NCBI RefSeq assembly: GCF_003144535.1
Contig: NZ_PHFJ01000001.1
Span: forward strand, 372,001 to 436,000
DNA: 64,000 bases
Reading direction: 5' to 3'
DNA from: Proteus penneri
Lineage (GTDB): Bacteria > Pseudomonadota > Gammaproteobacteria > Enterobacterales > Enterobacteriaceae
Numbering within the stretch: position 1 is the first letter of the stretch; each line of letters opens with the position of its first letter. The notes under the pieces were generated by a model. The model saw only the letters and a program-made list of their open reading frames with translations, did no database searches and had not been told where the DNA came from. The position numbers and the translations under genes are program-made. Shown here piece after piece: positions 70 through 2,160 of this stretch.

Positions 70-265
70 ACTTCCTCCGATATTCGATTTGAAAATTAAG
101 CAAAAAGTAATATAAGAGATAAATAAGATTATTTATCTAGCACTCTACTAAGCTTATGGTTAATATAGCCACTTATTTATTTTTCACTTCTCTTTATTGT
201 AGGTTGTTATTATGTAATACGCATTAAGGCACTGAAAGAATCGTGCAAATACAGAAAAATTAACT

Positions 266-292
266 TACCAAATTTATTTTAAAAATTTGGTA
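266..292. repeat. Inverted repeat upstream of the RNA ligase gene
   Basis: Perfect 10-bp arms TACCAAATTT (266-275) and AAATTTGGTA (283-292) with a 7-nt spacer, ending 30 bases before the ligase start codon. It could be an operator or a leader hairpin controlling the RNA-repair operon. There is no T-tract after it on the plus strand, so it does not look like a terminator. Confidence 0.5.
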
Positions 293-322
293 GAGCTTCT
301 GTTACTTAATGAGTATTAAATA

Positions 323-1027
323 ATGAATAATCAATCACAAAAATATGATAGAACCTATCACTATCCTTTTTCACCAGGCACAACAAACGACGATCGTATA
401 AATGCGCAATGGTGGCAGGATATTTGTCAAATAAAACAACTTATCCATACAGAAAAACTAGATGGAGAAAATAATTGCCTAAATAAAATGGGGGTTTTTG
501 CGCGTTCGCATGCAACTCCAACGCAATCAGCGTGGACATCTCAATTGCGTCAACGTTGGCAAATGATGAAAAATGATTTAGGTGAATTAGATATTTTCGG
601 TGAAAATTTATATGCCATTCATTCTATTGAATATGCACACTTAGAAGAATATTTTTATGTGTTTGCGGTTCGTTATAAAGATAAATGGCTAGGTTGGGAA
701 GAAGTGCAGTTTTATGCTTCTTTGTTTGATCTTCCTACTGTGCCAGAAATTAAATTGCCTGAATGTCAGGATAAAACAGAGTTTGAAAATATGATTGTTT
801 CACAAGCCAAAAAGGCAAGTTTTTTTCAATCTCAAGATGTTTTAACTCAAAAACTAAGCCCAATGGAAGGTATTGTTACACGAGATGCACAGTCATTTTC
901 TTTAAATGATTTTTCTCATCGTGTTTTTAAATATGTTAGAAAAGACCATGTTAAAACAGATGTTCATTGGAAAAAAAATTGGCGGCGAGCCCCTTTAATC
1001 TGGGAAAAAACACAGGAGTCTCAATGA
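323..1027 (+). CDS. ATP-dependent RNA ligase (nucleotidyltransferase family)
   Basis: The 234-residue protein shows the ordered motifs of covalent nucleotidyltransferases of the RNA ligase family. Motif I is KLDGEN at residues 45-50, with Lys45 the expected AMP-accepting lysine. A motif III-like FGENLYAIHS lies near residue 92. Motif IV is EGIVTR at 182-187 and motif V is KYVRK at 203-207. By family knowledge it seals 5'-phosphate to 3'-hydroxyl ends of broken RNA. Its stop overlaps the start of the HD/kinase gene (ATGA), so the two are translationally coupled and form an end-healing plus sealing pair. The ribosome site is weak. The subfamily within RNA ligases is not resolved from sequence reading alone. 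Confidence 0.88.
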   Translation: MNNQSQKYDRTYHYPFSPGTTNDDRINAQWWQDICQIKQLIHTEKLDGENNCLNKMGVFARSHATPTQSAWTSQLRQRWQMMKNDLGELDIFGENLYAIHSIEYAHLEEYFYVFAVRYKDKWLGWEEVQFYASLFDLPTVPEIKLPECQDKTEFENMIVSQAKKASFFQSQDVLTQKLSPMEGIVTRDAQSFSLNDFSHRVFKYVRKDHVKTDVHWKKNWRRAPLIWEKTQESQ

Positions 1028-2160
1028 TGCTTCATAAAAAACTACACACTGAAATGTCATGGGAACACCTTTGTGAACTGTATGATGAAATAAATGATAT
1101 GGCTGGTGTTATACAAGATCCTATTCATCATGCAGAAGGCGATGTGGCGATACATACACAAAGAGTAATCAATTCAGTGAAATCATTGCCAGAATATACG
1201 AGGCTAACTGAAAGAGAACAGCAAATTTTATGGATCTCGGCACTATTTCATGATGTAGAAAAACGCTCTACAACCCGGGAAGAAGAGGGACGTATTGTTT
1301 CACCGGGTCATGCACGTAAAGGTGAGCTAACAACGCGTCTTTTTCTATATAAAAAAGTACCTTTAAGCTTTGCTGATAGAGAGCAGATCGCTGCTTTAGT
1401 TCGCTTTCACGGTTTACCGTTGTGGGTGATGGATAAACCTGATCCTAAAAAAGCTCTGCTTGCTGCATCACAGAGAGTAGATTGCTATTTATTAGCATTA
1501 TTAGCTAAAGCTGATGTTTTAGGGCGAGACTGTGAAGATAAACCAGCTCTTTTTGATAAAATTGCGTTATTTACACTTTATTGTGAAGAGTTAAATTGTT
1601 GGCGTAGAGCTGCTCCATTTCCTTCAAATGATGCTCGTTTTCACTATTTTTATACAGACAGTAGTACGGATTGTAATTACGAGCCTTATCCTGAAAAAGG
1701 AAGTGAAGTGACAGTGTTATGTGGATTACCTGGTATGGGAAAAGATACCTTTATTCGCCAACATTGTGCAGATCTTCCGATTGTGAGTTTAGATGATCTC
1801 CGTCGCCAACATAATATTAAACCTGATAACAGAGATGCTAATGGTTGGATAGCACAGCAAGCAAAAGAACAAGCTCGTATATATTTACGAGAGCATAAAC
1901 CTTTTGTTTGGAATGCCACCAATATTACAAGAAAAATGCGAGATCAACTTATCTCTTTGTTTTATCGTTACAATGCAAAGATTACGTTGGTATATATTGA
2001 AGTCCCTTATGCGCAATGGCAGAGGCAAAATAATGCAAGAAACGAAGCAGTGCCAGCTAAAGTAATGGAACGTATGTTGAATAAATTGGAAGTACCAACA
2101 CCAGAAGAGGCACACAAAGTGATTTATTGGATTGAAGGTCAATCTCAGACCATATTTTAA
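1024..2160 (+). CDS. HD-Pnk: HD phosphoesterase fused to 5'-OH polynucleotide kinase
   Basis: Start chosen at the ATG at 1024, which overlaps the ligase stop and has AGGAG at 1014-1018; an in-frame ATG at 967 would overlap the ligase by 61 bases without a good ribosome site. The 378-residue product has an N-terminal HD domain (His36, His44, His76-Asp77, His96, His129). This is followed by a P-loop kinase with GLPGMGKD at 234-241 and SLDDLR at 255-260, the DDxR signature of T4-type polynucleotide kinases. By analogy with the HD-Pnk enzyme of Runella, the HD part should remove 2',3'-cyclic phosphates or 3'-phosphates and the kinase part phosphorylate 5'-OH ends. That prepares cleaved RNA for the adjacent ligase. 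A clear terminator follows. Confidence 0.87.
   Translation: MMLHKKLHTEMSWEHLCELYDEINDMAGVIQDPIHHAEGDVAIHTQRVINSVKSLPEYTRLTEREQQILWISALFHDVEKRSTTREEEGRIVSPGHARKGELTTRLFLYKKVPLSFADREQIAALVRFHGLPLWVMDKPDPKKALLAASQRVDCYLLALLAKADVLGRDCEDKPALFDKIALFTLYCEELNCWRRAAPFPSNDARFHYFYTDSSTDCNYEPYPEKGSEVTVLCGLPGMGKDTFIRQHCADLPIVSLDDLRRQHNIKPDNRDANGWIAQQAKEQARIYLREHKPFVWNATNITRKMRDQLISLFYRYNAKITLVYIEVPYAQWQRQNNARNEAVPAKVMERMLNKLEVPTPEEAHKVIYWIEGQSQTIF

What the first reader, a model, noticed from the sequence alone, without database searches (positions are those of the whole stretch)
266..2160. Two-gene RNA end-healing and sealing operon (RNA ligase + HD-Pnk)
Seen: a ligase with intact motifs I, IV and V overlaps (ATGA) a fused HD-phosphoesterase/polynucleotide kinase with intact HD, P-loop and DDxR residues, ahead of a strong terminator. 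Together they hold every activity needed to repair RNA cut with 2',3'-cyclic phosphate and 5'-OH ends. Known: T4 Pnkp/Rnl1 undo the anticodon nuclease PrrC, and a Runella HD-Pnk has been characterised biochemically. Inferred: this chromosomal pair may protect against tRNA-cleaving toxins (colicin-type, contact-dependent or anti-phage anticodon nucleases). The 10-bp inverted repeat 30 bases upstream could couple it to a stress signal.
Basis: partly seen in the sequence, partly recalled or inferred. Interest (0 to 1): 0.72.

Follow-up and report, generated by a model that had tools for sequence, protein, structure and literature searches.

The report
Proteus RNA end-repair gene pair
Two overlapping Proteus genes encode a small RNA ligase and an enzyme that repairs broken RNA ends; the pair is of a known kind, but some relatives in Serratia and Bacteroides sit beside the RtcB-PrfH ribosome-repair genes, which suggests that it mends RNA cut by toxins.

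Summary
A 234-aa ATP-dependent RNA ligase (323-1027) overlaps by ATGA an HD-phosphoesterase/polynucleotide kinase (HD-Pnk, 1024-2160); a terminator follows. The known kind is the Deinococcus DRB0100-0099-0098 operon and HD-Pnk, here without the macro-domain gene. HD-Pnk lies beside the ligase in all 28 ligase-positive genomes of 295 surveyed, and downstream in 79 of 80 fetched genome loci. Both genes are full-length in 19 of 20 Proteus.

What I add is context. In 21 of those 80 loci rtcB lies upstream on the same strand, in 9 with prfH; 8 carry rtcB, prfH, ligase and HD-Pnk (3 Serratia, 5 Bacteroidota). The rtcB-linked ligases are not one clade (AU p=8e-81). Serratia and Bacteroidota ligases are 61-66% identical but their RtcB only 30-32%, so the linkage probably arose at least twice. 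KptA/Tpt1 sits just upstream in two loci. This favours RNA repair after ribotoxin damage over DNA repair. In Proteus the pair stands alone; this strain's rtcB2 lies elsewhere, split between two frames. The upstream repeat looks more like an RNA hairpin than an operator. Substrate and sealing are untested; the Deinococcus ligase adenylates but did not seal.

The parts
200..246 (+). block upstream of the ligase conserved across Proteus; probable promoter or regulatory region
   Evidence: run of invariant columns in a 10-sequence Proteus alignment; window 150-322 matches in 19 of 20 Proteus genomes, the exception having lost the ligase; no sigma-70-like site found there on the + strand
265..293 (+). 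hairpin in the probable 5' untranslated region, 11 pairs including G-U
   Evidence: 92.7% of 110 cells paired, 3 pairs with changes on both sides, G-U at one position in 9 of 10 rows
323..1027 (+). ATP-dependent RNA ligase, 234 aa, nucleotidyltransferase domain with family-specific N- and C-terminal motifs
   Evidence: Pfam RNA_ligase 4.8e-27; PHROG RNA ligase 6.6e-38; model mean pLDDT 90.5; K45, E94, E182, K203 in 80 of 80 cellular relatives
1024..2160 (+). HD-Pnk, 378 aa: N-terminal HD phosphoesterase, C-terminal P-loop polynucleotide kinase
   Evidence: AAA_33 1.6e-26, HD 0.023; profile hits polynucleotide kinases and an HD domain; residues
2208..2237 (+). intrinsic terminator (nearly symmetric, also scores on the - strand)

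Best explanation
The pair is a two-enzyme RNA repair kit. HD-Pnk opens and removes the 2',3'-cyclic phosphate left on the 3' end and phosphorylates the 5'-OH end; the small ligase then joins 3'-OH to 5'-phosphate using ATP. Shown: gene structure, domains, conserved catalytic residues, near-obligate pairing. Inferred: that the substrates are RNAs of the translation machinery (tRNAs first, possibly rRNA) cut by ribotoxins from rival bacteria or phage-exclusion systems, and that the pair complements RtcB2-PrfH, which mends rRNA but was reported not to protect against tRNA-cutting colicins.
For: Domains and residues. HD-Pnk adjacent in 28 of 28 ligase-positive genomes out of 295 and downstream in 79 of 80 fetched genome loci, in two of them with one gene between. 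Both genes full-length in 19 of 20 Proteus. A second, divergent ligase (22% identical in the one compared) also precedes an HD-Pnk in one more genus, in both genomes of it that were looked at. rtcB upstream on the same strand in 21 of 80 loci, prfH in 9, all four genes in 8; KptA/Tpt1 immediately upstream of the ligase in Runella zeae and a Dysgonomonas. These partners act on RNA and ribosomes. Linkage probably arose more than once. RtcB2-type gene in 21 of 28 pair genomes versus 16 of 267 others; urease control 7 of 28 versus 45 of 267. PMC9223846, sections 2.4 and 3 read: RtcB2-PrfH protects from colicin E3, not from E5 or D.
Against: The Deinococcus relative DRB0100 adenylates but sealed neither DNA nor RNA in the conditions tried, and no DNA ligation was seen with its operon partners (PMC1997131 passages). 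Deinococcus HD-Pnk is reported to aid resistance to ionizing radiation and mitomycin C (title seen in a reference list only). In Proteus the pair is not beside rtcB2-prfH; of the 42 Enterobacterales among the 80 loci only the 3 Serratia show the linkage within the fetched flanks. In 59 of the 80 loci no rtcB was found, some of them cut by contig ends. Long-type RtcB also co-occurs with the pair (19 of 28 versus 25 of 267), and none of these counts is corrected for phylogeny. One Proteus of 20 has lost the ligase and most of HD-Pnk.
Confidence: 0.62

Rival explanations
1. The pair repairs DNA breaks with 3'-phosphate and 5'-OH ends (or DNA/RNA hybrids), as first proposed for the Deinococcus operon; the RNA-repair neighbours in relatives are incidental.
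For: Deinococcus operon induced by radiation, its kinase acts on DNA oligonucleotides (PMC1997131 passages); paper title linking HD-Pnk to radiation and mitomycin C resistance (reference list).
Against: rtcB, prfH and kptA next to relatives in two phyla; ligase matches RNA ligase families; the Deinococcus ligase did not seal DNA.
Confidence: 0.18
2. The pair serves housekeeping RNA processing or stress-induced RNA turnover, mending RNA cut by the cell's own toxins (for example MazF-type mRNA interferases), rather than foreign toxins.
For: Both genes full-length in 19 of 20 Proteus genomes, so it is not a recent island there; a conserved upstream region and a 5' hairpin suggest regulation.
Against: Patchy in the family, 28 of 295 genomes, with some decayed copies: a frame-broken and a stop-containing ligase and one in-place loss; this looks more like conflict genes than housekeeping.
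Confidence: 0.15

Closest known systems
Deinococcus radiodurans DRB0100-DRB0099-DRB0098 operon (ligase, PARG-type macro domain, HD-Pnk)
   Same: Same two enzymes in the same order; ligase with one domain only; ligase 33% and HD-Pnk 29% identical; PMC1997131 passages, PMC11833690 passages
   Different: No macro-domain gene between the two here; the Deinococcus ligase did not seal in vitro. Its authors saw no motif V, but in my alignment it keeps the family's K-x-V-R
HD-Pnk of Runella slithyformis and relatives (Shuman laboratory)
   Same: HD then kinase domain order; the HD-Pnk of Runella zeae (L139) is 48% identical and also lies behind the same ligase
   Different: The R. slithyformis biochemistry is recalled, not read; Runella zeae has KptA upstream, the Proteus window has an SDR gene there
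RtcB2-PrfH operon (colicin E3 resistance)
   Same: Acts on 2',3'-cyclic-phosphate/5'-OH breaks; directly upstream of this pair in Serratia, and an rtcB-prfH pair likewise in five Bacteroidota loci with all four genes
   Different: Different ligase chemistry (direct 3'-phosphate/5'-OH joining); separate locus in Proteus
T4 Pnkp + Rnl1 against PrrC
   Same: Same order of chemical steps: heal both ends, then seal with ATP (recalled)
   Different: T4 uses another phosphatase fold on the other side of the kinase and a two-domain ligase (recalled)
Pnkp1-Rnl-Hen1 complex (PMC4411300, start of abstract seen in a search listing)
   Same: Bacterial RNA repair of ribotoxin cuts
   Different: No Hen1 methylase gene beside this pair; the neighbours are an SDR and a DUF4822 gene

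Membership tests
HD-Pnk family | HD phosphoesterase and P-loop Pnk in one chain, in that order | tested here: met
   AAA_33 above cut-off, HD 0.023 below cut-off; profile hits HD and polynucleotide kinase structures
HD-Pnk family | catalytic residues (HD motif, P-loop lysine, D and R of the kinase, lid arginine; roles recalled) | tested here: met
   H76, D77 79 of 79; K240, D257, R260 78 of 78; R339 77 of 77 aligned
HD-Pnk family | kinase and 3'-phosphoesterase activity | not testable with these tools
   needs purified protein
ATP-dependent RNA ligase (PF09414, Rnl2-like) | nucleotidyltransferase motifs with nucleophilic lysine | tested here: met
   K45, E94, E182 in 80 of 80; Pfam 4.8e-27
ATP-dependent RNA ligase (PF09414, Rnl2-like) | classical motif V K-x-K (recalled) | tested here: not met
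   K203-Y-V-R206; K203, V205 and R206 invariant in 80 of 80 cellular relatives
ATP-dependent RNA ligase (PF09414, Rnl2-like) | fold match to a solved RNA ligase | tested here: inconclusive
   T4 Rnl2 1s68 only at E 0.88 by sequence profile, behind chance hits; fold searches could not be run
Deinococcus DRB0098-0100 type operon | macro/PARG gene between ligase and HD-Pnk | tested here: not met
   ATGA overlap leaves no room
RtcB-PrfH repair operon | rtcB and prfH adjacent | tested here: not met
   in the own genome they lie on another contig, C22

The most novel reading that the evidence does not exclude
The ligase/HD-Pnk pair is the second arm of a PrfH-centred rescue programme: PrfH frees ribosomes stalled by cut RNA, RtcB2 mends ends it can join directly, and ligase/HD-Pnk mends the breaks RtcB2 does not, notably tRNA cuts. 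Bacteria in two phyla assembled the two arms into one operon independently, and Proteus keeps them apart.
Probability: 0.35. Interest if true: 0.68.

Novelty: new member of a known kind. Interest (0 to 1): 0.48.

Why it matters
What damage ATP-dependent RNA repair enzymes of bacteria meet in nature is largely open (my judgement), and the Deinococcus example has been discussed as DNA repair. The linkage to rtcB, prfH and kptA gives a concrete hypothesis testable in laboratory E. coli: which toxin cuts does the pair reverse, and does it cover the tRNA toxins that RtcB2-PrfH does not? The four-gene clusters of Serratia and Bacteroides are good subjects for reconstitution.

Tried and rejected
Replacement of the Rtc system by the pair: rejected, they co-occur (26 of 28 pair genomes have RtcB1 or an RtcB2-type gene, the split one of G000 counted). 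Defence-system membership: no PADLOC match. Upstream repeat as DNA operator: not favoured. Known RNA family near the operon: only two sub-threshold snoRNA-family matches. Recent mobile-island origin in Proteus: not supported, 19 of 20 genomes keep both genes. Distant ligases on plasmids: no HD-Pnk annotated next to them in the three records looked at, of 51 records hit. Viral relatives: HD-Pnk within the locus in 10 of 80, some of them near-duplicate contigs; of nine neighbouring proteins from five of these loci, two were BtpA family and five had no Pfam match. A close-relative scan of viral contigs with the ligase alone found none.

Dropped rows and limits. Of 516 genome contigs relatives only the best 80 were returned and examined, of 271 viral relatives 80. 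Absence of rtcB or prfH means absence within at most 7 kb; several loci are cut by contig ends. The ligase tree used 90 of 92 rows; L091 and L126, whose aligned stretch held a stop, were left out, and its bootstrap had not settled. The AU test used 62 of the 90, 27 close relatives and the phage row removed; the group was defined by gene neighbourhood, but I had seen the tree. RtcB and PrfH trees are midpoint-rooted with three groups, so they show distance, not order; the PrfH tree carries a long-branch warning. RtcB2 versus RtcB1 was assigned by me from bit scores, hits transcribed by hand; rtcB2 with prfH beside it was checked in seven genomes. Five partial RtcB hits were left out of the main count; with them 21 of 267. 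Six weak urease hits, one in a pair genome, were left out of the control. The invariance of residues 8-15 and 208-216 is partly built in, because the scan patterns used them. Direction of transfer rests on midpoint rooting with a long phage branch.

Literature: the searches listed no paper that by title or abstract start describes rtcB-prfH beside ligase/HD-Pnk, and I found none in the passages read. The most likely place, Burroughs and Aravind 2016 (recalled), is not held, so priority cannot be claimed; the 2019 release-factor paper (PMC6514570, passages) lists other accessory genes and points to a supplement that I did not see.

Full report
What is there. The window begins at G000:C11:372001 of a 3.77-Mb Proteus genome (the genus follows from the 95-99% matches to named Proteus). 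The ligase ORF 323-1027 and the HD-Pnk ORF 1024-2160 overlap by ATGA and end before a 13-pair terminator at 2208-2237. The neighbours are an SDR gene upstream and a DUF4822 gene downstream, both on the other strand; neither suggests a role.

Identity. The ligase matches Pfam RNA_ligase at 4.8e-27 over residues 39-205 and a PHROG RNA ligase at 6.6e-38. Its model is confident (mean pLDDT 90.5) but could not be compared with solved folds, the search machine being busy at each of eight tries; by sequence profile T4 Rnl2 appears only at E 0.88. Across 80 cellular relatives K45, D47, G48, E94, E182, K203 and R206 never vary. The classical second lysine of motif V (recalled) is absent from the 80. 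Outside the Pfam model lie two family motifs, KYxRTxHxxxSPGxxxDD at the N end and HVxTDxHW at the C end; they are also strongly conserved in 80 viral relatives, but the scans that fetched these sets used parts of them. HD-Pnk has a clear kinase domain, related by profile to T4 polynucleotide kinase and to entries such as 4gp7 (recalled as the Clostridium Pnkp kinase), and an HD domain that scores below the Pfam cut-off in this protein but keeps its residues in the relatives.

Distribution. In 295 family genomes the ligase occurs in 28 and HD-Pnk in 33. All 28 ligase genomes have HD-Pnk directly beside it. The other five are one in-place remnant in a Proteus (G082), two genomes of one genus with a 39-40% HD-Pnk, and two weak hits. 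The two 39-40% cases also have an RNA ligase directly upstream, longer (307-308 aa; Pfam 3e-35) and, for the one compared, only 22% identical: the architecture recurs with a different ligase subfamily. Some copies are decaying: a stop in the ligase of G180, a frame break in G238, a stop within the matched HD-Pnk stretch of G070. Within Proteus, 19 of 20 genomes have the ligase (80-100% range for the pair; ligase 83-100%) without inner stops and a full-length HD-Pnk beside it; the twentieth, G082, has only the remnant.

Fetched relatives. The genome scan found 516 relatives and returned the best 80: by title 42 are Enterobacterales (Proteus, Xenorhabdus, Providencia, Budviciaceae, Serratia, Enterobacillus) and 38 Bacteroidota, many of the latter metagenome bins. 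HD-Pnk is found downstream in 79 of 80, in L095 and L120 behind one other gene and in L143 in two frames; Dysgonomonas mossii (L133) lacks it. In the tree of 90 ligases the Enterobacterales form one clade (100/95) placed within Bacteroidota, rooting by midpoint only. A transfer from Bacteroidota is the simplest reading.

Linkage to ribosome repair. rtcB lies upstream on the same strand in 21 of 80 loci: 18 of 38 Bacteroidota, and 3 of 42 Enterobacterales, all three Serratia. In 16 of the 21 it is next to the ligase or separated only by prfH (and kptA in L141); in L112, L114, L116, L119 and L124 it is 1.1-3.7 kb away with other genes between. prfH is present in 9, and rtcB, prfH, ligase and HD-Pnk are all present in 8 (L115, L117, L118, L128, L134, L135, L136, L141; in L135 rtcB runs off the contig). 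Within these eight the gaps are short or overlapping apart from kptA in L141. A further genome, G273, whose ligase groups with Serratia, has the same order. The RtcB and RF-1 (PrfH) assignments were confirmed by Pfam for one Serratia and one Bacteroides. KptA/Tpt1 sits between prfH and ligase in L141 and just upstream of the ligase in L139, Runella zeae; two further KptA cluster members lie farther off (L095, L143).

Independence. Holding all rtcB-linked ligases together costs 130 log-likelihood units (AU p 8.1e-81). The ligases of the three Serratia are as close to the 18 linked Bacteroidota ligases (61-66% identical) as to four Proteus ones (62-67%), whereas Bacteroidota RtcB is only 30-32% identical to Serratia RtcB2, which is 55-56% identical to the whole Proteus RtcB2 copies. 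PrfH is less telling: 47-50% to Proteus, 41-45% to Bacteroidota. So the Serratia cluster probably did not arrive whole with the ligase; the linkage very likely arose at least twice, which argues for a functional tie. Loss of linkage in other lineages may also have occurred.

Co-occurrence. An RtcB2-type gene is present in 21 of 28 pair genomes (the split one of G000 counted) and 16 of 267 others (Fisher 1.5e-16; by genus 12 of 15 versus 10 of 139), against a urease control of 7 of 28 versus 45 of 267 (p 0.30). Long-type RtcB1 is also enriched (19 of 28 versus 25 of 267). These tests ignore phylogeny, there is one control only, and some non-carriers are reduced genomes, so they are supporting evidence only.

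Own genome. rtcB2 and prfH lie on contig C22; rtcB2 is split between two reading frames in this assembly (real or a sequencing error), prfH is open, and three other Proteus have rtcB2 in one frame. No long-type RtcB was found. If the split is real, the pair is this strain's only intact end-repair system among those searched (RtcB family and this pair; RtcA and KptA were not searched).

5' region. Ten Proteus sequences keep a hairpin at 265-293: 92.7% of cells pair, three pairs change on both sides, and nine of ten rows have G-U at one position; the number of further pair types does not exceed shuffles (112 of 500) and four pairs have unpaired cells. With ten related sequences this is suggestive of RNA structure, not proof. 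A conserved block at about 200-246 may hold the promoter.

Mechanism. RNases that leave 2',3'-cyclic phosphate and 5'-OH produce ends that ATP-dependent ligases cannot use (stated in PMC7824862 passages); HD-Pnk would heal both and the ligase seal. PMC9223846 (sections 2.4 and 3 read) reports that RtcB2-PrfH protects from colicin E3 but not E5 or D, leaving tRNA damage as the open niche. Against this stand the failure of the Deinococcus ligase to seal the substrates tested and the reported radiation phenotype of its HD-Pnk (title only). PMC11833690 (passages) links the Deinococcus macro protein to removal of RNA ADP-ribosylation, which also fits defence against RNA-damaging toxins.

Verdict. 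The pair is a real and fairly ordinary member of a known enzyme couple. Its relatives' repeated placement beside RtcB-PrfH, and in two loci KptA, is the part worth following; I found it described in none of the papers I could search, but the most relevant review was not available.

Noticed in passing
G000 contig C22 ~48-50 kb (L054): rtcB2 of this strain is split between two reading frames while prfH behind it is open; intact copies exist in other Proteus (L057, L058, L061).
   Followed up: partly
L055 (G082): One Proteus of 20 has lost the ligase and most of HD-Pnk in place, keeping a C-terminal HD-Pnk remnant near the usual neighbours.
   Followed up: yes
L059:6343-8417 and L060:6370-8447: A parallel two-gene operon in another genus of the family: a longer RNA ligase (307-308 aa) followed by a 39-40% identical HD-Pnk.
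   Followed up: partly
L112, L114, L124 (and L116): In some Bacteroidota one or two genes lie between rtcB and the ligase: in L112 a predicted AAA/peptidase M41 protein and a second protein, with cluster relatives in L114 and L124; L116 has one 686-aa protein without Pfam match.
   Followed up: no
L145-L150, L161, L163, L167, L177 and L032: Several phage contigs, many of them very large, carry both the ligase and HD-Pnk, with a BtpA-family gene between them in L146 and L147.
   Followed up: partly
window 200-246: Upstream block strongly conserved across Proteus, with no sigma-70-like promoter match on the + strand.
   Followed up: partly
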